Assembly: GCF_003569765.1 (NCBI RefSeq)
Contig: NZ_QXMG01000029.1
Location: 1 to 64,000 of the forward strand
Source: Caldimonas tepidiphila
GTDB lineage: Bacteria; Pseudomonadota; Gammaproteobacteria; Burkholderiales; Burkholderiaceae_C
Direction: 5' to 3'
DNA length: 64,000 nt
Shown here: positions 55,898 through 63,674 of the stretch, piece by piece
Position numbering within the stretch: position 1 is the stretch's first letter
How the letters are laid out: every line of letters starts with the position of its first letter
Made by a program: the position numbers and the translations under genes
Notes under the pieces: model-generated
The model's input: the letters and a program-made list of their open reading frames with translations, nothing else
What the model was told of the DNA's origin: nothing
The model's database searches: none

Positions 55898-56160
55898 AGG
55901 CCGCGCGCGGCTTCACGAATGGGCGCCGGGCCGCGGCCCGGCCCCATCGAGATCGCGACCCGCAGGCGGCAAGGCCCGCGCGCTGCGCCTTGCCAGCTGC
56001 CGCCTCCTGGCCCGGCGCGGCACGCAAAGCCGCACCGAACCGTGCCACAATCCGGCCTTCGTGCCGGACCCCGGTCCCGCCTGCCTCGCCTTCGCAGAGA
56101 AGGTCGAGCGGGCCCCGGGTCCGCGGCGACCTGCTACCCGGGCTCTCTGCAGCCCGGTTT

Positions 56161-56237
56161 CTGCCCGTAGCTCAACTGGATAGAGCAACTGCCTTCTAAG
56201 CAGTAGGTCGGGGGTTCGAGTCCCTCCGGGCAGGCCA
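56161..56237 (+). tRNA. tRNA-Arg (anticodon TCT)
   Basis: Acceptor CTGCCCG/CGGGCAG, D arm GCTC-AGAGC, anticodon stem ACTGC/GCAGT with loop CTTCTAA (TCT), TTCGAGT T loop and encoded CCA (56235-56237). It reads AGA, a rare codon in a GC-rich genome. The GC content drops sharply right after its 3' end, so it is the likely attachment gene of the island. Confidence 0.95.
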
Positions 56238-56699
56238 ACAACATCAATGACTTAGCACGGCCACAGCAAAGATCCGCCTTTGCCTCTACCCGCGCGGGAA
56301 CCACTTTGGGAACCGCTCTATGTGCGCGTACTTCACCATGGCGGCCCACCTCCCGGTTAGAGCCAGCTACCGCAGCCACCCGTTTTTCCTACCTCACAGT
56401 GTTGGGCGCAGTGAAGAAAGAGTCCCCTCTACCAGAACGGGTGCCCCCCAGCAAGAGCCCAAGGACGCCGAAGGCTTAAGATGGACACTGACAAGCCTTC
56501 GGAGACAGGCTCGACTGGGGCGCACTCGCTGCAGTGGAGGCACGCCTCTTACCACCCGAGACAGCTCCGATTGTTGTCCCTCTAAAGCACGGGCAGGCGA
56601 GACAAGGCCAATCGTCGGGAACGCTATAAAAATATGAAACGGCGCGCTGCCCTGCCGGGTACTGCCGTTAAAAGAAGTCGAAATGAGGGAGAGAAAATA
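56238..56699 (+). other. Non-coding leader before the reverse transcriptase gene
   Basis: 462 nt without a credible gene. It holds a strong hairpin, CCGAAGGCTT (56468-56477) with AAGCCTTCGG (56493-56502), 15-nt loop, and a smaller one GAGG-CACG-CCTC near 56537-56547. A TATAAA (about 56625) could be a -10 element for the downstream gene. It may hold a non-coding RNA of the reverse transcriptase system, the island junction, or both. Confidence 0.45.
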
Positions 56700-58139
56700 A
56701 TGGCGCCCATCCAAGCCAATCTTTCGGCAAGCATCCCGCCGGAGACTGTCGATCACGAGGCACTCTTCAAAACGCACTTCTCACCGACGGCACTTGAGCA
56801 AGCCTTCAAAGAAAAGTTCGCCACTACAACTGGCAAGGGTGTCGACCGGCTCAACGGGTTCCAGTTTGCGCCTAGGTCAGCAAGCGAGTTGGAGATTACC
56901 TCATCCAAGATTTTGGCAGGCCATTTTCGTTTCTCGCCGTACCTTGAGGTGCTACGACCAAAGGCAAGAGATAAGCATCCCCGCTTGATTGGCATTCCAA
57001 CAGTGCGCGATCGCGTCGTTCTCCGTCAGCTCAACAAATACCTTGCCACGCTTTACCCGGAGCGCGTTCCTAAGAATGTGGCGAGCACATACGTCCGAGA
57101 GTTGGCGGCCGACCTCCAAGCACGCCCCTTGGACAAAACCTGGGTCTGCAGCACAGACATCCAAAAGTTCTATGACTCGATTAAGCAGGAACGACTACTG
57201 TCAGTTCTCGCGAAGCGGGTCAAATTTGATGCTGCAATCCGGCTGATTAGGCACGCCATCGCCACCCCAACGGTGCCGCGAAACACGCGACGTAATCGAC
57301 ACAAGGACTACCCTTCGGCAGGTGTACCGCAGGGCTTAGCGATCTCGAACATCCTTGCATCAATCTACATGCAGGACGTTGACGAGGCAATGAAAGGCTT
57401 GGGTGTTGTCTACTACCGTTATGTAGATGACGTTTTAATGTATGGAGAGCATGATGCGGTTCATATGGCGCACAAGTCGCTTCGGGCTCGCTTAAAGTAT
57501 AGAGGCCTTGCACTTCACCCACTTGGCTCAGGGAAGACGCAAATTGAACCGCTGGATAAGCCTTTTGGATACCTGGGCTACACCTTTCAAATGCCCCTCA
57601 TTTCCGTGAGGCCCTCGACCACCGAGCGTTTTTTGCAATCCATTGCAGCGAAGTTCAGCGACTTTTCCCACAACAAGACGCGAAGGCTCGAAAAGTTCAA
57701 GTATCTCAATGAAGAGCGCCTCAAGGAAATCTTCCTCCTTGAGTTGAATGAACGCATTACAGGTGCAATCGCTCAAAAGCGGCGATACGGTTGGATCGCC
57801 TACTTCAACCAGATCAGCGACCTATCGCTTCTACACCGGCTTGATGCATCTATAGAAAATATGTTTAAACGGATGAAGGAGTTCGGAAACTCCCCCCCAT
57901 CCGGGCTTAAGAAGGTACGCCGCGCTTATTACGAGATGAAGCTTAACCCGCAAGGCGGCTACGTTCGAGACTATGACCGCATCTCAACCATTCCAGAAAT
58001 GCTTACGTTTCTAGTAGAGCGTGGTCGAGTCGCTCCCGACGTGACCCTAACCGACACCGAAATCAAGGAAAAATACAACAAGTATGTGAACCACGTACTT
58101 GTAGCAATGCACGCCGATGAGGGAACCGTTTATGGCTAA
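56700..58139 (+). CDS. Defence-type reverse transcriptase (Unknown Group/Abi-like; candidate DRT10)
   Basis: 479 aa RNA-directed DNA polymerase. Motif A STDIQKFYDSI with catalytic D153, SAGVPQGLAISNILAS at 206-221, YRYVDDVLMYG with YVDD at 241-244, and FGYLGYTF near 289-296. The C-terminal 180 residues are helical and unassigned. It lacks the retron motifs (NAxxH, VTG) and any maturase or HNH domain, so retron or group II intron is unlikely. ATG 56700 has GAGGGAGAG at the right spacing; ATG 56634 is weaker. Followed by a 350-nt structured gap and a SLATT-type membrane gene, the known partner of one defence RT group. Predicted to make cDNA from a cognate RNA upon phage infection and trigger the membrane protein. 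Lower GC than the chromosome. Confidence 0.85.
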   Translation: MAPIQANLSASIPPETVDHEALFKTHFSPTALEQAFKEKFATTTGKGVDRLNGFQFAPRSASELEITSSKILAGHFRFSPYLEVLRPKARDKHPRLIGIPTVRDRVVLRQLNKYLATLYPERVPKNVASTYVRELAADLQARPLDKTWVCSTDIQKFYDSIKQERLLSVLAKRVKFDAAIRLIRHAIATPTVPRNTRRNRHKDYPSAGVPQGLAISNILASIYMQDVDEAMKGLGVVYYRYVDDVLMYGEHDAVHMAHKSLRARLKYRGLALHPLGSGKTQIEPLDKPFGYLGYTFQMPLISVRPSTTERFLQSIAAKFSDFSHNKTRRLEKFKYLNEERLKEIFLLELNERITGAIAQKRRYGWIAYFNQISDLSLLHRLDASIENMFKRMKEFGNSPPSGLKKVRRAYYEMKLNPQGGYVRDYDRISTIPEMLTFLVERGRVAPDVTLTDTEIKEKYNKYVNHVLVAMHADEGTVYG

Positions 58140-58489
58140 GCCCCCGATTGAGGAAACTCTCGGTTAGCTCTCAAAGAAGTCTGTCTCCCCTCCGGCTCCT
58201 CTCTAGGGCCGCCACGGCGTGCAACGGCTGTCGGTCGATCTTCCAGCCTTGTCCAACGCCCTCTAGATCGTTTAAGATGTCGGCGGGCGGGAGATGCTTA
58301 TCGCGCAAGCGATACCTCATCGGGCTTTGGCTCTGTGAGCGGAAGTGCTCCCTACTCTGCACAAGCACGGGATGCAGCCTTGGTTGGCTGCAGAACCTTT
58401 TCGAGGGCGACGTTCGTCGGCGCTGCTCGGAAAGTGGATATGACCTGATTTCTCAAGCTTCTTCCGCCCCACCACTCCAAAAATAGACA
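58140..58489 (+). ncRNA. Candidate non-coding RNA of the RT-SLATT system
   Basis: 350-nt gap between the RT stop and the SLATT start, with no coding frame of note and many hairpins: GAG-GAAA-CTC (58150-58159); TATCGC-GCAA-GCGATA (58299-58314) extended by GATG/CATC; GAGC/GCTC (58337-58350); TGCAGCC/GGCTGCA (58373-58392); CGAC-GTTC-GTCG (about 58407-58418). GGCGT/ACGCC and CTAGGGC/GCCCT pairings close a larger domain over 58203-58266. CTCTAG occurs twice exactly 60 nt apart (58201, 58261), and CAGCCTTG occurs twice. Its position fits a template or scaffold RNA for the RT; boundaries and promoter are unknown. Confidence 0.55.
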
Positions 58490-59128
58490 ATGAAAGAATT
58501 TCTTGCTGAGCTACGCACAAGGGCTTGGCGCACTGCTGGCGCACGTTATAACGCCTCTCGTCGACTAAAGATGCGAGAGTCGCTGTCGACATGCAGCTTG
58601 GCGCTGCTTTCTGCACTAAGCATTGCGGTAGCCTTCATCCAGAAAGTCTACTCCTCTACACCGGGCACCCCTTTAGACAATTATTTATCTTCGCTTGCCG
58701 TCGGGGTGGGGGTGCTTCTCTTAGTCGTCAGTCTACTGGAATGGGGGGCGGGATACGGCGCCCGTGCCGAAGCACTCCATCGCAATGCGGAGCTACTCAC
58801 CGCTTTTCATACTAAGGTGGGGATGGCTATTGCTCTGTTAGATTCCGGAACTCCGATCTCAGTGGAAGCGGTCGACAAACTTCGAATCGAGTACGATGAA
58901 ATTAAGGAACGGTGCAGTACCAATCACTTGCCACGAGATGACGAACTGTTCCGCGCTCATCGCCGGTCGGACGACGAGTTTAAGAGAAACGGTAAGCCAG
59001 CGATGAGTACGTCTCGCGCGCTCTGGAATCGCCTCGCTTGGGGCCTTTCCGAGGTGTGGTTTTTTGCAGTGATTTGGCTGCTTGTGGTGGGTTCGCTTGT
59101 GTACTCGTTATGGATCCCGAAGATTTAA
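58490..59128 (+). CDS. SLATT-domain membrane protein, putative effector
   Basis: 212 aa. Begins with a basic helix (RYNASRRLKMRESLS), then TM1 (about 34-51), TM2 (about 67-86), the SLATT-like EWGAGYGARAEALHRNAELLTAFH stretch described by its ends only (EWGAGYGARAEAL), a charged cytosolic helical region, and a third TM (188-207). SLATT (SMODS and SLOG-associating 2TM effector) proteins are predicted pore formers in defence islands, and one SLATT family is known to pair with reverse transcriptases. It probably kills or halts the cell when activated by the RT product. No strong Shine-Dalgarno is seen, so translation may depend on the upstream RNA. Confidence 0.75.
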   Translation: MKEFLAELRTRAWRTAGARYNASRRLKMRESLSTCSLALLSALSIAVAFIQKVYSSTPGTPLDNYLSSLAVGVGVLLLVVSLLEWGAGYGARAEALHRNAELLTAFHTKVGMAIALLDSGTPISVEAVDKLRIEYDEIKERCSTNHLPRDDELFRAHRRSDDEFKRNGKPAMSTSRALWNRLAWGLSEVWFFAVIWLLVVGSLVYSLWIPKI

Positions 59129-59129
59129 A

Positions 59130-59177
59130 CCAGAGATGCATACGGAATCACACTGAGAAGTTTTTCTGAATCTCTGG
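59130..59177 (+). terminator. Inverted repeat just after the SLATT gene
   Basis: CCAGAGAT (59130-59137) and ATCTCTGG (59170-59177) pair perfectly, enclosing a smaller AGAA/TTCT hairpin around a T5 run. It starts 2 nt after the stop codon and could end the RT-SLATT transcript or form part of a 3' RNA. Confidence 0.45.
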
Positions 59178-59766
59178 GTACGAGCCCCCTTAGAAATTAA
59201 ATATGGAAGGCGCCTGTGCAATGTATTATTTCTTCACAGCGCCCCTGCCAATCAACTTCAGCAACTGGGCCGCAGTCGATCACAGGTTGTCGTAAGTTTT
59301 TTATTGAACGCCGATTTTAGCTTTGCGATGCAGTTGAAAAATTCACCTGCGCAATCTCAACTCCCGCACCAAGTCTTCGCCCCCCTTTTAGCCTTCCTCT
59401 GATTGTTTATTCTTAATCGATCTACGAGGTGAACCGATAAGGGGAGACAAGACACTGAGCAACTCTGAGTTTTCCAAAAGCATCGGTCAGGATTGACTGC
59501 TGGCATGGTCGAACAAGCTAAAACAGCCAGCCAAGAGCATAGCGATTAAACGTTTTCGACCGCTTTCTAGAGAGAGCCAAGCCCTGCAAGAGAGAGCGCC
59601 GGGTGCCGCTCAAGACAAACGCCATCCTTAGCCCCCCCAACCCCACCATTTGAATGGCCACCCCGCCGGGTGGGCCCCATCGTTCAGCCCCCCTGTCCCC
59701 GGCACCTCTGCACATCTTGACAGGAGCGCACACGAGAACGCCCCTCTTGCCATTTTTTGGCCGTTC
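59178..59766. other. 589-nt low-coding stretch between the SLATT gene and the satellite backbone
   Basis: AT-richer than the core, with stops in all frames at short intervals; the open frames present (e.g. 59518-59733) have no Shine-Dalgarno or family features. It separates the plus-strand RT-SLATT unit from the minus-strand operon, and the motif AAAATGG[CT]A recurs near its right end. Confidence 0.5.
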
Positions 59767-60594
59767 TTACCATTTTGACGAGCGCGTGTAAAAATGGTAT
59801 GCAATATCGCCGCGGATACCACCATGCGTTCGCCCAAACTCTAGAAGCTTTGCGCGCTCACGCCGCCAAGCAAATAGACTGGAGGCCTCAATCAAAAGCT
59901 CCCGCCACTCATAAATTTTCTTGCGAACATCCTCACGCACATTCTCAATACGCCACCGCAAACCATGCTTGGGAGGCAATTCAGCGCGCAGCGCGAAAGC
60001 CCAATCCAAGATTGCAGCGTAAAAAACAACGAGCATGTCAATCACACAAAATCCAGCACGCAACCGATCATTTTCCACGCCGATCTTTCCCATTAGCGCC
60101 GCCCCTTTATCACACGCACCAATGAAAAAATTGACGCACATGTTCAGATCCTTCTCCAATTGCGCGTGCCGCTCTACTGGGATTTCCACCGCAATTGCAC
60201 GAACCGCCGGAGCAAATCTTTTAACACACCCCTCCGCCATAATCATCGCGACTCCCTTGGCCTCCAAATCCATGCGCGCATCGATTTCTAGCCCAGAATA
60301 ATAAACAACCCTCTCCCGAGGCTCATTAACAAAATCCATTGCCGACAAAAGGGGACTGAGCAAGCTGTCCACATGCCGCCACTGATCGGGGTCTCTCCCA
60401 CCGAGATAACGTTTTGGATCTTCCTTAATCCAATAAGAGAAACAATCCTGAGCCTTGCCGACCAACTCCCCCTTTATAGGAATAGAATAAAATTCATCGC
60501 ATACCGCCGTCATTGCGCGCTTCACGCGCTCCTCGGCATAGTCGCGGCGCAGATCAAAAATCTCGGTGTATTTGAAATCCTTTGGATTGGACAT
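59767..60594 (-). CDS. Hypothetical island protein
   Basis: 275 aa from ATG 60594 (MSNPKDFKYTEIFDLRRDYAEERVKRA), with AGGAG upstream. Mixed alpha protein, with one hydrophobic segment near VIDMLVVFYAAILDWAFAL and a basic C-terminus. No family recognised; no catalytic motif visible. It starts 11 nt after the previous gene stop and is part of the minus-strand operon below the primase. Its last codons lie in an inverted repeat (59768-59799). Confidence 0.6.
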   Translation of the reverse strand: MSNPKDFKYTEIFDLRRDYAEERVKRAMTAVCDEFYSIPIKGELVGKAQDCFSYWIKEDPKRYLGGRDPDQWRHVDSLLSPLLSAMDFVNEPRERVVYYSGLEIDARMDLEAKGVAMIMAEGCVKRFAPAVRAIAVEIPVERHAQLEKDLNMCVNFFIGACDKGAALMGKIGVENDRLRAGFCVIDMLVVFYAAILDWAFALRAELPPKHGLRWRIENVREDVRKKIYEWRELLIEASSLFAWRRERAKLLEFGRTHGGIRGDIAYHFYTRSSKW

Positions 60595-60604
60595 GGCTTT
60601 GCTC

Positions 60605-60958
60605 CTAAAAAACCTTATGAGACGGGCGCCCGACTGAGCGCTTAACGAAGTTTGATTCGGGCGGCACCCAGACAGACACCCGCCCCCCTGCAAGACGTAC
60701 CTGCTCACTGTGCCAGCCTAGTTCCCGCAAGGCAGGCCCGAGGGTCGTGATAGCTTCACCAGCGGCGCTAGCGATGGCATCGCCAACGTAATACGGCAGG
60801 CGCTTGGCCACGGGAATTTCGTTCCACCAGCGCAGCACTTTTCGACGCAGGCGCTCAGCCTTGCGGCGCTCCCTCATTGGAATATCTACCTGAATCTCAA
60901 CCTGAATAGGTGGAATGCCGGCAGGCAGAGAAACAGGAGCATGGGGTTTCTTGCTCAT
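60605..60958 (-). CDS. Hypothetical basic island protein
   Basis: 117 aa from ATG 60958 with AAGGAG upstream. The centre is a strongly basic helix (MRERRKAERLRRKVLRWWNE), the C-terminus is VSVWVPPESNFVKRSVGRP. It could bind nucleic acid, but no family is recognised. It lies 191 nt from the primase gene, across the repeat cluster at 60972-61143. Confidence 0.55.
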   Translation of the reverse strand: MSKKPHAPVSLPAGIPPIQVEIQVDIPMRERRKAERLRRKVLRWWNEIPVAKRLPYYVGDAIASAAGEAITTLGPALRELGWHSEQVRLAGGRVSVWVPPESNFVKRSVGRPSHKVF

Positions 60959-60971
60959 GAAAACTCCTTGG

Positions 60972-61143
60972 TGTGCGTCGATGGCGACGATGAATTTCCG
61001 GTTTACACAGAAATTTGGACACGGCAGGTGTAAAGCTGGATCGCCCCGGCTGCCATTTTTCTCACTAAAATAAAAATATCGTCGCCACCGTCGCCAACGT
61101 CGCACCTCCAGTAGAAATAAGAAATAGCACGGCGCGACGATAT
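60972..61143. repeat. Repeat cluster downstream of the primase gene, candidate replication origin
   Basis: Three 9-nt tandem units with core CGTCGC (61080-61106) sit at 9-nt spacing, a fourth related unit in inverse orientation (TGGCGACG) lies at 60982-60989, and a perfect 10-bp inverted repeat pairs 61076-61085 with 61134-61143 (ATATCGTCGC). An AT-rich tract (61052-61079) adjoins the units. Origins next to phage primases often have such iterons and an easily melted region; an operator is the other option. Confidence 0.4.
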
Positions 61144-61149
61144 CGGGGT

Positions 61150-62730
61150 CTAGGCTTGGCCCCAGCCGTAATTCCGCAGGCCAAAGGCGGATGCCGCCAT
61201 CTGCCGCGCCTCGCTCAAGCCAGGAAGGGACCAAGCCCGGCGGCGGGAAACTCGACTACCAACAGTAGCGCTCGCTGGCCCGCACCCGAAAGCCTCATGC
61301 AAGCGGCGCCCGATTGCACGCGTATCGATTCGCCCCGCTCGGATACCTGCCCTCCGGCAGTACGCCTCGTAGCCCTCTGCTGCCATCCCGCACTCGATTG
61401 CAACCCGCTCCTCCCCCCACTCGTTGCCGCCGCCGAGAGAAGTAGCCGTGTCAAGCGCATCAAGAATCCATCGGTCCAGCGCCGGCATGTTCTCGATCTT
61501 CTGTGAGTCGAGTGCAGACGTATGCGGCACTGCCCGAGGGTTGAACCCCTTAAGTTCTCGATCCAAGAGGTGGCGGAGGAAGATTCCCGCTCCGCCGCTG
61601 TCAATCCACTCGTTTAGCTTGCCGAAGTAGGCGTGGTCCTGTGCGCGGGAGGGAGGCACGTCAACAACGAAATACCGTCGCTCGTCTGCGCCGGCCGGCA
61701 CCACGAACGCATTGTTCGATGCCATGAACACCGTGATGCGGTTCGGCGCCATGAACACATCTCGGCCCTTCATCTCGATGGCGACGCTCGGCTCTGTAAT
61801 CAACCCCTTCAAGACGCCCTCGGCGCTCTTGTCGCCCGCCCAGTACCCCTCGTCCACAAACACCACGAGTGCGTGCCGGAGGTGGCTGTTGAAGTTGCCT
61901 ACCAAGTGCCGCGAGTTGGTGATGTGCAGGAAGTGCCGCCCGAAGATCTTTCCTAGCATCCGGAACAGCGTGCCCTTCCCCGTGCCCTGCGCTCCGCGCA
62001 GAACAAGCGCCACCTCCAAACGGGTTCCGGGCCGCTGCACGATCAATGCCATCGCGTTCAGGAAATACTCGGCAAGCTCGGCGTTTCCCGAGCAAAGCAT
62101 TCGCACATGTTCAAGCGCCAGCGTGGCATCTCCCTCGCTTGGGGCTACCGCGAAGCCCTTGAACAAATAGAAGACGTCGGGCTTCGGCGTACCGTCTGGC
62201 ACAAGCGCAATTCCTCCTAGGAACTGTCGCCGCCGCTCCGAGCGAAGCCAGGCCTCCGCAAGGGGAACCCGCCGCATTCCAGTCGGTGCGTGATACTCCG
62301 CAAAGCGGTTCGAGAGCAACAGCTTGAACTCCCCAACGCTGATAGCTGTAAGGCGTGCATGCCCAGTCTCAGGGTCGCTCTGCTCCTGCCAAATCGTCGG
62401 CTTCCCTGATCCATCAGGCGCAATGAAAAACTCCTTGTTGATCAAGTCGATATCGTCAGGTGCGTCGGCACTTGCCTGTACTACAGGCAACCGCTCCTCA
62501 GCAACCTTCGCCTGTTGCCCTGCGGCCGGACCCATTTCTGCCTCATCAGCCTTCTCCGCGTTTCCCACCACCCCATCAGAATCAAAACAGAAATTCAACC
62601 CCGCCAGCAACTCCTCAATTTCATCGGCGCCTTGATTTTTCTCCTTCAAGATGACTGTTGCTTCCGTTTCCTCGGCCTGCTGTCGTGCCCCTGCCTTCAC
62701 TCGATCCCATAGCGGTTTCGCCCCCATCAT
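61150..62730 (-). CDS. SF3 helicase/primase-type replication protein (DUF5906-like)
   Basis: 526 aa. The C-terminal half has an SF3-like ATPase: Walker A GAQGTGKGTL near residue 247, Walker B ALVVFVDEGYW near 290, and sensor-like ITVFMASNNAFVVP. This is the D5/DUF5906 helicase of phages and P4-type satellites, which opens the origin. The N-terminal 120 residues are acidic and have no primase-palm motif I recognise, so primase activity is not shown. ATG 62730 overlaps the upstream stop (TAATG) and has GGGAG upstream; ATG 62748 lies inside that gene. Confidence 0.82.
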   Translation of the reverse strand: MMGAKPLWDRVKAGARQQAEETEATVILKEKNQGADEIEELLAGLNFCFDSDGVVGNAEKADEAEMGPAAGQQAKVAEERLPVVQASADAPDDIDLINKEFFIAPDGSGKPTIWQEQSDPETGHARLTAISVGEFKLLLSNRFAEYHAPTGMRRVPLAEAWLRSERRRQFLGGIALVPDGTPKPDVFYLFKGFAVAPSEGDATLALEHVRMLCSGNAELAEYFLNAMALIVQRPGTRLEVALVLRGAQGTGKGTLFRMLGKIFGRHFLHITNSRHLVGNFNSHLRHALVVFVDEGYWAGDKSAEGVLKGLITEPSVAIEMKGRDVFMAPNRITVFMASNNAFVVPAGADERRYFVVDVPPSRAQDHAYFGKLNEWIDSGGAGIFLRHLLDRELKGFNPRAVPHTSALDSQKIENMPALDRWILDALDTATSLGGGNEWGEERVAIECGMAAEGYEAYCRRAGIRAGRIDTRAIGRRLHEAFGCGPASATVGSRVSRRRAWSLPGLSEARQMAASAFGLRNYGWGQA

Positions 62731-63248
62731 TAATCTCCCATATCGCAAATCACGGCGCCCACGTGAGGTACGGCTTGGATGCCTGCGTCCGCGCCCGTGC
62801 CGATGTTGATGACAATCGTGGGTAGATTTTCATTCGTACCCTTTGCGGCGGCCATACGCTCCGAGTGCTCGACCACGCGGTGCACCTTCGGCAAGAAAGC
62901 TCCCACGTCGTCCACATCCAACTCCCCCGCCTGCACCGCCTTGTGCAAACGCTGCAGCATCGCTAGCGTTACTTTGGCTGCAAGGGGTGCGAGCAAATCC
63001 CCGCCAAGTTCGGCCTTGGCTTGCGCAGCCACCAACTCGCCGGCGAATTCTGGCGTATCGATCAACGCCTCCACCTCCGACACGGAAATCCCGCAGTGCG
63101 CCGCGAGCTGCTCTACATCGCCCCCGGTAGCAATTACGCGCGGAAATACGGCGAGCAGCATGGCTTGCTTTTCCGTCGCTGATTTAGGAACGGCGCTGCC
63201 CTTAACCCCTAGCTTGCCGGGGCTGTAATTCGGCTTTACAGTTTTCAT
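62730..63248 (-). CDS. Small helical DNA-binding-like island protein
   Basis: 172 aa from ATG 63248, with GAGGTGG upstream. A helix-turn-helix-like stretch is visible (GGDVEQLAAHCGISVSEVEALIDTPEF in parts VEQLAAHCG and ISVSEVEAL). It somewhat resembles phage terminase-small/HTH proteins, but I do not assign a function. Its stop TAA overlaps the helicase start by one base, so the two are translationally coupled. Confidence 0.6.
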   Translation of the reverse strand: MKTVKPNYSPGKLGVKGSAVPKSATEKQAMLLAVFPRVIATGGDVEQLAAHCGISVSEVEALIDTPEFAGELVAAQAKAELGGDLLAPLAAKVTLAMLQRLHKAVQAGELDVDDVGAFLPKVHRVVEHSERMAAAKGTNENLPTIVINIGTGADAGIQAVPHVGAVICDMGD

Positions 63249-63350
63249 ATCCACCTCGACCCGGCCTTGCGCCGGGTATTTTTTCGACCTATGCAGGCGG
63301 GTGCGTCCTATAGCAGGCGCCTTGGGCACAACCGACGCGGCTTAGCTGGA

Positions 63351-63590
63351 TTACGTGGCGTCGCGGTCTTTGCTGGCGCTGTCTCGCGCCGCAACGCGCT
63401 CTGCTACCCACCGCATGACTTCCTGACGAAGCCAGCCCACCGAACGAGGGCCCAGCTTAATGCTGTGGGGGAAGCGGCGAGCAGCCATATCCTCGTAAAT
63501 TGAGGACCGGCTCCTCCCTGTCAGGGCCTTGACCTCTGCAAGGCGCATGACGCCTTCACGAGGCTCGGACTGTCCTTGGTTCCCGATCAT
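63351..63590 (-). CDS. AlpA-family regulator (MerR-like winged helix)
   Basis: 79 aa from ATG 63590 with AAGGAG upstream. MRLAEVKALTGRSRSSIYEDMAARRFPHSIKLGPRSVGWLRQEV is a typical AlpA/phage-excisionase-like HTH (key parts LTGRSRSSIYEDM, FPHSIKLG, VGWLRQEV). AlpA-type proteins control integrase and excision in satellite elements. It sits upstream of the replication gene block, as in P4-like elements. Confidence 0.85.
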   Translation of the reverse strand: MIGNQGQSEPREGVMRLAEVKALTGRSRSSIYEDMAARRFPHSIKLGPRSVGWLRQEVMRWVAERVAARDSASKDRDAT

Positions 63591-63674
63591 GTACGACTCC
63601 TTCTTAGGGCCACCGAAGCAGTCCGGTGGCATGGGTCGTACTGTAGGGACGAGCTTCTCGAAAAGCGCCCCCTA

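What the first reader, a model, noticed from the sequence alone, without database searches (positions are those of the whole stretch)
56700..59128. Reverse transcriptase, non-coding RNA gap and SLATT membrane protein form a candidate anti-phage DRT system
An RT with intact catalytic motifs (D153, YVDD 241-244), not of retron, DGR or group II type, is followed by a 350-nt hairpin-rich gap and then a three-TM SLATT protein, all in a mobile island at a tRNA gene. SLATT proteins are predicted pore formers and are known to pair with RTs in defence loci. From memory, this RT+ncRNA+SLATT layout is what is called DRT10, reported to make tandem-repeat cDNA in a telomerase-like way; I have not verified the family assignment. 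A high-GC betaproteobacterial copy in a satellite is a useful, probably little-studied case.
Basis: partly seen in the sequence, partly recalled or inferred. Interest (0 to 1): 0.9.

Follow-up and report, generated by a model that had tools for sequence, protein, structure and literature searches.

The report
Telomerase-like anti-phage system in island
This stretch holds a bacterial defence cassette of the recently described DRT10 type (a reverse transcriptase, its template RNA and a membrane protein) inside a small mobile island, and its RNA lets one predict the DNA repeat it should make.

Summary
The RT (56700-58139) is a UG17 enzyme (PADLOC RT_UG17, 459.5 bits, E 2.6e-138; next best model 128.1). 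UG17 is the class that a 2025 preprint (PMC12632851) renamed DRT10. The downstream gene is SLATT_5. The gap holds a real structured RNA, but only at 58283-58474: a covariance model built without the window finds it (118.6 bits, E 2.2e-29), and 25 of 37 pairs show changes on both sides over 10 loci. The first 143 nt of the gap are peculiar to this copy (14-20 nt in the 10 other loci). Added here: eleven RTs with the order RT-RNA-SLATT form one clade (100/100); all 11 have Tyr where most other UG17 RTs end in Ser; ten template loops keep GAT-N6/7-GAT while the spacer changes. This predicts Tyr478 as primer and (AGGTCATATC)n as cDNA. The cassette sits in a 9.5-kb integrase/AlpA/primase island with 47-bp att repeats at tRNA-Arg. 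E. coli has the same cassette in a P4-like element. New member of a known kind; function was not tested here.

The parts
56191..56237 (+). attL: 3' part of tRNA-Arg(tct), left boundary of the island
   Evidence: exact 47-bp direct repeat with contig positions 65625-65671; tRNA 56161-56237
56700..58139 (+). DRT10/UG17 reverse transcriptase, 479 aa; D153, YVDD 241-244; predicted priming residue Tyr478
   Evidence: PADLOC RT_UG17 E 2.6e-138; Pfam RVT_1; C-terminus alignment
58140..58282 (+). spacer peculiar to this copy (143 nt; 14-20 nt in the 10 other loci), no sign of structure; probably not part of the RNA
58283..58474 (+). DRT10 noncoding RNA: closing stem with hairpins inside
   Evidence: window-free model R2 118.6 bits, 58285-58475; R1, which includes the window, 157.1 bits; covariation
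58397..58434 (+). hairpin just 5' of the template loop, counterpart of SL5 (template boundary)
   Evidence: helix 5, 6 of 11 pairs with both-side changes; folds
58437..58449 (+). predicted template A-B-A': GAT-ATGACCT-GAT (A-B 58437-58446, A' 58447-58449); predicted cDNA unit AGGTCATATC
   Evidence: the only repeat shared by the 10 loops; both GAT copies invariant in 11 rows; coordinates
58490..59128 (+). SLATT_5 membrane protein, 212 aa, presumed effector
   Evidence: PADLOC RTasSLATT E 1.3e-42; Pfam SLATT_5 E 2.1e-31; AF2 model pLDDT 86
59767..60708 (-). 313-aa protein of unknown family, island cargo
   Evidence: no hit in PADLOC, Pfam, NCBIfam or PHROGs
61150..62748 (-). phage-type primase/helicase (DUF5906, VapE-like); P4-family primase model matches below its cut-off
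   Evidence: (TIGR01613 39.3 of 108.7 bits)
63351..63632 (-). AlpA-type regulator/excisionase
   Evidence: PF05930 E 3.8e-17; PHROG excisionase

Best explanation
It is a DRT10 anti-phage cassette carried by a P4-like satellite-type island. Proposed working: the RT binds the RNA at 58283-58474. Tyr478 at its C-terminus primes cDNA synthesis on the loop just 3' of the boundary hairpin (58397-58434). The RT copies A-B (GATATGACCT), stops at the hairpin, lets go, re-pairs the nascent ATC end with the second GAT, and repeats, giving long single-stranded (AGGTCATATC)n fixed to the RT. The cDNA holds the SLATT membrane protein in check, or signals to it; phage infection upsets this and SLATT damages the membrane, aborting the infection. 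Shown here: family, gene linkage, RNA structure, conserved template pattern, conserved terminal Tyr, mobile setting. Shown by others for relatives, not for this copy: phage defence, the need for RT and SLATT, protein priming, repeat cDNA (PMC12632851). Inferred only: Tyr478, the repeat unit, and how SLATT is controlled (the preprint also leaves that open).
For: UG17 459.5 bits against 128.1 for the next model. SLATT_5 next door. RNA found by a model that never saw the window. 89.6% of pair cells are standard pairs, against 42.2-47.1% when partners are slid. Invariant GAT...GAT at a spacing of 9-10 with five different spacers. The same reading on 7 Eco3-like loci (4 different loops) gives CAA-N6/7-CAA, again at 9-10, which agrees with the measured Eco3 template CAATGATTC followed by CAAT (PMC12632851, sections 7 and 8 read). 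Tyr at the presumed priming position in 11 of 11 clade RTs. ExoI (SbcB), reported essential in E. coli with UG17 (passage in PMC12483538), is present in 5 of 7 UG17 genomes tested, this one included.
Against: A repeat of 3 nt or more turns up by chance in 63-81% of shuffled loops, so the template rests on conservation, and the invariant GATs could be kept for another reason. A second register, TGA-CC-TGA (cDNA GGTCA), is open in this copy. For E. coli L140 (probably Eco1) the repeat that I would pick by eye (TTAC) is longer than the 2-nt A that the preprint reports for Eco1, and L138/L152 show none that is clear. AlphaFold leaves residues 475-479 at pLDDT under 50, so closeness of Tyr478 to the active site was not shown. 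No promoter-like match before the RNA. ExoI was not found in 2 of 7 UG17 genomes. No expression data.
Confidence: 0.82

Rival explanations
1. DRT10 cassette as above, but the template uses the short register TGA-CC-TGA, so the product is (GGTCA)n or a mixture of registers.
For: The repeat is present in this copy and in L002, L003 and L010, and L011 and L004 have a related CTGA-CTGA; the preprint reports a cryptic re-annealing site in Eco1 that blurs the repeat.
Against: Lost in L001, L144, L147 and L174, while GAT...GAT is kept in all 10 loops. It begins further from the boundary hairpin.
Confidence: 0.15
2. The cassette works as an addiction module or as a stabiliser of the island (SLATT toxin held by the cDNA), and defence against phages is secondary.
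For: ExoI is reported essential in E. coli with UG17 (passages in PMC12483538 and section 8 of PMC9122126), so the cassette can be toxic; it lies in an integrative element.
Against: Three E. coli DRT10 systems gave robust phage defence in the preprint (passage); in PMC9122126 seven systems from the P4 cargo site protected against phages.
Confidence: 0.1
3. A decayed or non-functional copy: the 143-nt spacer between RT and RNA has cut the RNA off from its promoter.
For: The spacer is missing from the 10 other loci, and no promoter-like match lies before the RNA.
Against: Both frames are open, the catalytic motifs intact, and the helices of the RNA form. The promoter scan covers sigma-70 consensus only.
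Confidence: 0.08
4. A group II intron, retron or DGR reverse transcriptase with a chance SLATT neighbour.
For: Foldseek's best solved match is a group II intron RT, 6ar1; TIGR04416 matches at 126.8 bits.
Against: 126.8 is far below the cut-off of 300, retron models lower still. No intron or retron RNA family in Rfam at E up to 1 in 55900-60200. SLATT linked in 10 of 11 loci.
Confidence: 0.01

Closest known systems
DRT10 (UG17), Eco1/Eco2/Eco3 of PMC12632851
   Same: UG17 RT, SLATT partner, RNA directly upstream of SLATT, hairpin then template loop with A-B-A', C-terminal hydroxyl residue at the priming position.
   Different: Order RT-RNA-SLATT, where E. coli L140-L143 have SLATT before RT; Tyr in the column where L141-L143 (456 aa, taken as Eco3 kin) have their last residue, Ser456; longer RNA (192 nt by model, against 137 nt by RIP-seq for Eco3). 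The passages and sections that I read do not state the gene order of Eco1-3; figures and supplements were not available.
RT-SLATT pair in the P4-like satellite of E. coli H120 (PMC9122126) and E. coli L144
   Same: RT and SLATT as cargo of a P4-like satellite. L144: RT 50% identical, same order, same RNA (it is one of the ten rows of the alignment), tyrosine recombinase beside a tRNA gene.
   Different: In E. coli the cargo sits between psu and int; here it sits at the tRNA end, away from the integrase, and no psu was recognised. That H120 carries the L144 type is my inference.
DRT9 (UG28)
   Same: RNA with a similar layout, protein-primed repetitive cDNA, sometimes a SLATT partner (passages in PMC12483538 and PMC12632851); DRT9 structures are among the best fold matches.
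   Different: PADLOC Drt9 gives 47.1 bits against 459.5 for UG17; DRT9 copies poly-U to poly-dA.
Telomerase
   Same: Repeat addition on a short RNA template with an alignment segment and a boundary element (argument of PMC12632851, sections 8-9 read).
   Different: Protein-primed and in bacteria; relatedness to TERT was not tested here.

Membership tests
DRT10 | UG17 reverse transcriptase with intact catalytic site | tested here: met
DRT10 | adjacent SLATT gene | tested here: met
   10 of 11 loci of the clade
DRT10 | structured RNA directly upstream of SLATT | tested here: met
DRT10 | A-B-A' pattern just 3' of a stable stem-loop | tested here: met
   GAT-N6/7-GAT in 10 of 10 loops (9 different); single-sequence significance is weak
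DRT10 | C-terminal Ser or Tyr at the priming position | tested here: met
   Tyr478, 11 of 11 in the clade; that it primes was not tested
DRT10 | tandem-repeat cDNA templated by the RNA | not testable with these tools
   needs sequencing of DNA from cells
DRT10 | phage defence that needs RT and SLATT | not testable with these tools
   needs plaque assays
Group II intron RT | maturase-type RT over the NCBIfam cut-off, with intron RNA | tested here: not met
   126.8 of 300 bits; no intron RNA in Rfam
Retron | retron RT over the NCBIfam cut-off | tested here: not met
   41.5 of 235 bits
DRT3a | Drt3a over the NCBIfam cut-off | tested here: not met
   90.5 of 200 bits
DRT9 | best match to the Drt9 (UG28) model | tested here: not met
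   47.1 bits against 459.5 for UG17
P4-like satellite | integrase, AlpA-type regulator, phage-type primase and att repeats at a tRNA | tested here: met
   the P4-family primase model itself (TIGR01613) stays below its cut-off
P4-like satellite | psu and other helper-hijacking genes, cos site | tested here: inconclusive
   none recognised among the 9 island proteins given to PHROGs; cos not looked for

The most novel reading that the evidence does not exclude
In this Tyr-terminated, RT-first branch of DRT10 the realignment triplet is fixed (GAT in all 10 loops seen) and only the spacer drifts, as CAA is fixed in the 4 different loops seen of the Eco3-like branch. Together with the Ser-to-Tyr change this suggests that each branch has its own 'address' in the cDNA repeat, read by the priming site or by its own SLATT partner, so that the sequence of the cDNA, and not only its repetitiveness, carries information.
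Probability: 0.2. Interest if true: 0.7.

Novelty: new member of a known kind. Interest (0 to 1): 0.42.

Why it matters
DRT10 is the proposed bacterial relative of telomerase, and how its repeat DNA controls SLATT is unsolved. This copy gives a falsifiable prediction (Tyr478 as primer, AGGTCATATC as repeat) for a branch of the family seen here in Pandoraea, Aromatoleum, Duganella, Pseudomonas and E. coli, and a covariance model that finds the RNA of that branch. If each branch keeps a fixed triplet, swapping RNAs and SLATT partners between branches would test directly whether the cDNA sequence is read.

Tried and rejected
E. coli searches with the window DNA, L012 and L007, and plasmid search with the RNA: no match. 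Sigma-70 promoter scan before the RNA: nothing. PDB sequence and fold search for SLATT: nothing at E 0.1 and E 0.001. Empty-site test: tRNA-Arg has one full-length match in each of the 8 other genomes of the genus, but the island's right neighbour (DUF2201) was not beside it in the 7 loci examined, so no clean empty site. Distance of Tyr478 from the active site: tail at low confidence in the model, coordinates not on hand. The 112-aa frame 58148-58486 was rejected as a gene: it overlaps the RNA and the spacer that relatives lack. R1 gives no match in the SLATT-first loci or L013, so it describes this branch only; its ten training rows match it by construction, and of the other hits L146 is a copy of L004 and L148 nearly one of L144. 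L138 and L152 loops gave no clear A-B-A' by eye.

Full report
What is there. At 56700-58139 lies a 479-aa reverse transcriptase with D153 and YVDD 241-244. It scores 459.5 bits against PADLOC's RT_UG17 and 128.1 against the next model. At 58490-59128 lies a 212-aa SLATT_5 protein (PADLOC RTasSLATT E 1.3e-42, Pfam E 2.1e-31, NCBIfam SLATT_5 118.2 bits, cut-off 60). UG17 was shown in a preprint (PMC12632851; abstract, sections 7, 8 and 9, the first of two parts of the figure legends, and passages of sections 4, 6 and 10 seen) to be a phage-defence system, DRT10: RT, RNA and SLATT are all needed, the RT is its own primer, and a short A-B-A' template gives tandem-repeat DNA as in telomerase. The link of UG17 with SLATT_5 was already known (82% of UG17 in complete genomes; passages of PMC8934634).

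Relatives. A pattern-based scan of one genome per species gave 4 loci at 56-73% identity. In samples that overlap, UG17 at E <= 1e-60 was found in 4 of 399 genomes of the family, 3 of 399 of the order, 2 of 369 of the class and 3 of 398 of the phylum; the window's own genome is counted in each, and the others come to six distinct genomes, so the system is rare. The family of G741 (43 genomes) gave only G741 itself. Viral contigs added L147, L148 and L174, the E. coli collection L144. Eleven RTs (window, L001-L004, L010, L011, L144, L147, L148, L174) form one clade (100/100) in a tree of 31 rows; with the more distant L013 they are the 12 rows in which the RT comes first (96/91, one change). 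L148 is nearly identical to L144, so there are ten distinct loci. SLATT follows the RNA in 10 of 11; in P. avellanae (L004) the contig ends 98 nt after the RNA and no SLATT start is seen. In the 17 other UG17 loci where both genes were located SLATT comes first (L007, L008, L012, L135-L138, L140-L143, L145, L150-L154). In L139 and L149 I did not locate a SLATT gene.

The RNA. Aligned over ten loci, the gap holds an RNA of about 160-190 nt: a long closing stem, a hairpin, a CCTC/GAG-type hairpin, a small GGA-AGUGC-UCC hairpin, one or two variable hairpins, then a strong hairpin followed by the loop. On 37 named pairs, 89.6% of cells are standard pairs and 25 pairs have changes on both sides; none of 500 shuffles reaches any of the five measures, and sliding the partners by 1-3 columns gives 42.2-47.1%. 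The alignment was made without structure, but the structure was derived from it, which favours slide 0. A model built from the nine other loci finds the window's RNA at 58285-58475 with 118.6 bits, E 2.2e-29 (E-values of these short calibrations are rough). In the own genome R1 gives one match (150 of 2,329 first-look places were scored). R1 does not find the RNAs of SLATT-first loci or of L013, nor any RNA in the 120 chance loci. Between RT stop and RNA lie 14-20 nt in the ten other loci and 143 here.

The template. In Eco3 the template lies directly 3' of SL5 (section 8 of the preprint). Here the hairpin 58397-58434 is followed by TGGATATGACCTGATTTCTCA. Within it two 3-nt repeats exist, GAT (spacing 10) and TGA (spacing 5). 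A 3-nt repeat alone means little: 63-81% of shuffled loops have one. But GAT...GAT is the only repeat found in all ten loops, with the spacers ATGACCT, ATGACC, CTGACT, TGGACT and ATTGCCT, and all six GAT positions are invariant in eleven rows. TGA-CC-TGA occurs in four loops, a related CTGA-CTGA in two more, and neither in L001, L144, L147 and L174. As a control, seven Eco3-like loci (L137, L141-143, L150, L151, L153; one clade; four different loops) show CAA-N6/7-CAA at a spacing of 9-10, as the measured Eco3 template CAATGATTC followed by CAAT would lead one to expect. Against this, for L140, which by length and Y444 is probably Eco1, the repeat that I would choose by eye (TTAC) is longer than the 2-nt A that the preprint gives, and L138/L152 show no clear pattern, so the rule is not safe everywhere. 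The predicted product is (AGGTCATATC)n.

The primer. Eco3 primes from Ser456 and Eco1 probably from Tyr444 (section 7 of the preprint). E. coli L141-143 (456 aa, ending in Ser) and L140 (444 aa, ending in Tyr) fit those two numbers. Of the 19 other UG17 RTs whose ends I saw, 16 end in Ser directly after the conserved stretch, L135 and L140 in Tyr and L154 in FSS. All eleven RTs of the window's clade end in DEGx[VILA]Y, some with one or two residues more, with Tyr in the column of the Ser. Tyr478 is therefore the likely primer. The AlphaFold2 model (pLDDT 87.7, 13 sequences) has a helix 452-474 leading to a low-confidence tail 475-479, so the model neither supports nor opposes this. That L144 is the preprint's Eco2 type is an inference, since strain names and supplements could not be seen.

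The setting. A 47-bp exact repeat of the tRNA-Arg 3' end lies at 56191-56237 and 65625-65671 of the contig, 9,481 bp from end to end. Between them are the cassette, a 313-aa orphan, three unknown frames (60605-61234, 62730-63329, 63675-64181), a phage-type primase (DUF5906 and VapE-like over their Pfam cut-offs; the P4-family model TIGR01613 below its own), an AlpA-type regulator and, beside the right repeat, an integrase. No psu or other helper-hijacking gene was recognised, so 'satellite' is a fair but unproven name. E. coli L144 carries the same kind of cassette between a psu remnant and the integrase at tRNA-Sec, and PMC9122126 (section 8) describes an RT-SLATT pair at that site in strain H120 and its link to SbcB. 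ExoI (SbcB) is present in 5 of 7 UG17 genomes tested, this one included.

Judgement. DRT10 membership passes every feature that sequence can test; cDNA, priming and defence cannot be tested here. The finding is a new member of a known kind, with a sharply predicted template and primer. That nothing in print treats this branch apart cannot be claimed: of the listings for DRT10, UG17, UG17 with SLATT, tandem-repeat cDNA, telomerase with DRT, SLATT with satellite, and sbcB with SLATT, I opened the four papers PMC12632851, PMC8934634, PMC12483538 and PMC9122126 and a DRT3 preprint (PMC13174585, passages), and the library lacks most subscription journals.

Noticed in passing
L006 (own genome, contig C66, 18241-19023): A second reverse transcriptase in the same genome, 31% identical over query residues 45-307; it sits on a very long branch outside the UG17 rows. 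Perhaps a group II intron RT; no family search was run on it.
   Followed up: partly
   Followed up: partly
L003 SLATT (Duganella), C-terminus: The SLATT protein carries a tail of repeated Thr-Ala-Pro that the other SLATTs aligned with it lack.
   Followed up: no
L136/L149 (Vibrio-type UG17) loops: By eye TTAA-CGGTC-TTAA and TTAA-TAGTC-TTAA: perhaps another branch in which the repeat is kept and the spacer drifts.
   Followed up: partly
window 59767-60708, - strand: 313-aa island protein without any family match in four libraries; no relative among the 14 loci compared.
   Followed up: partly
   Followed up: no
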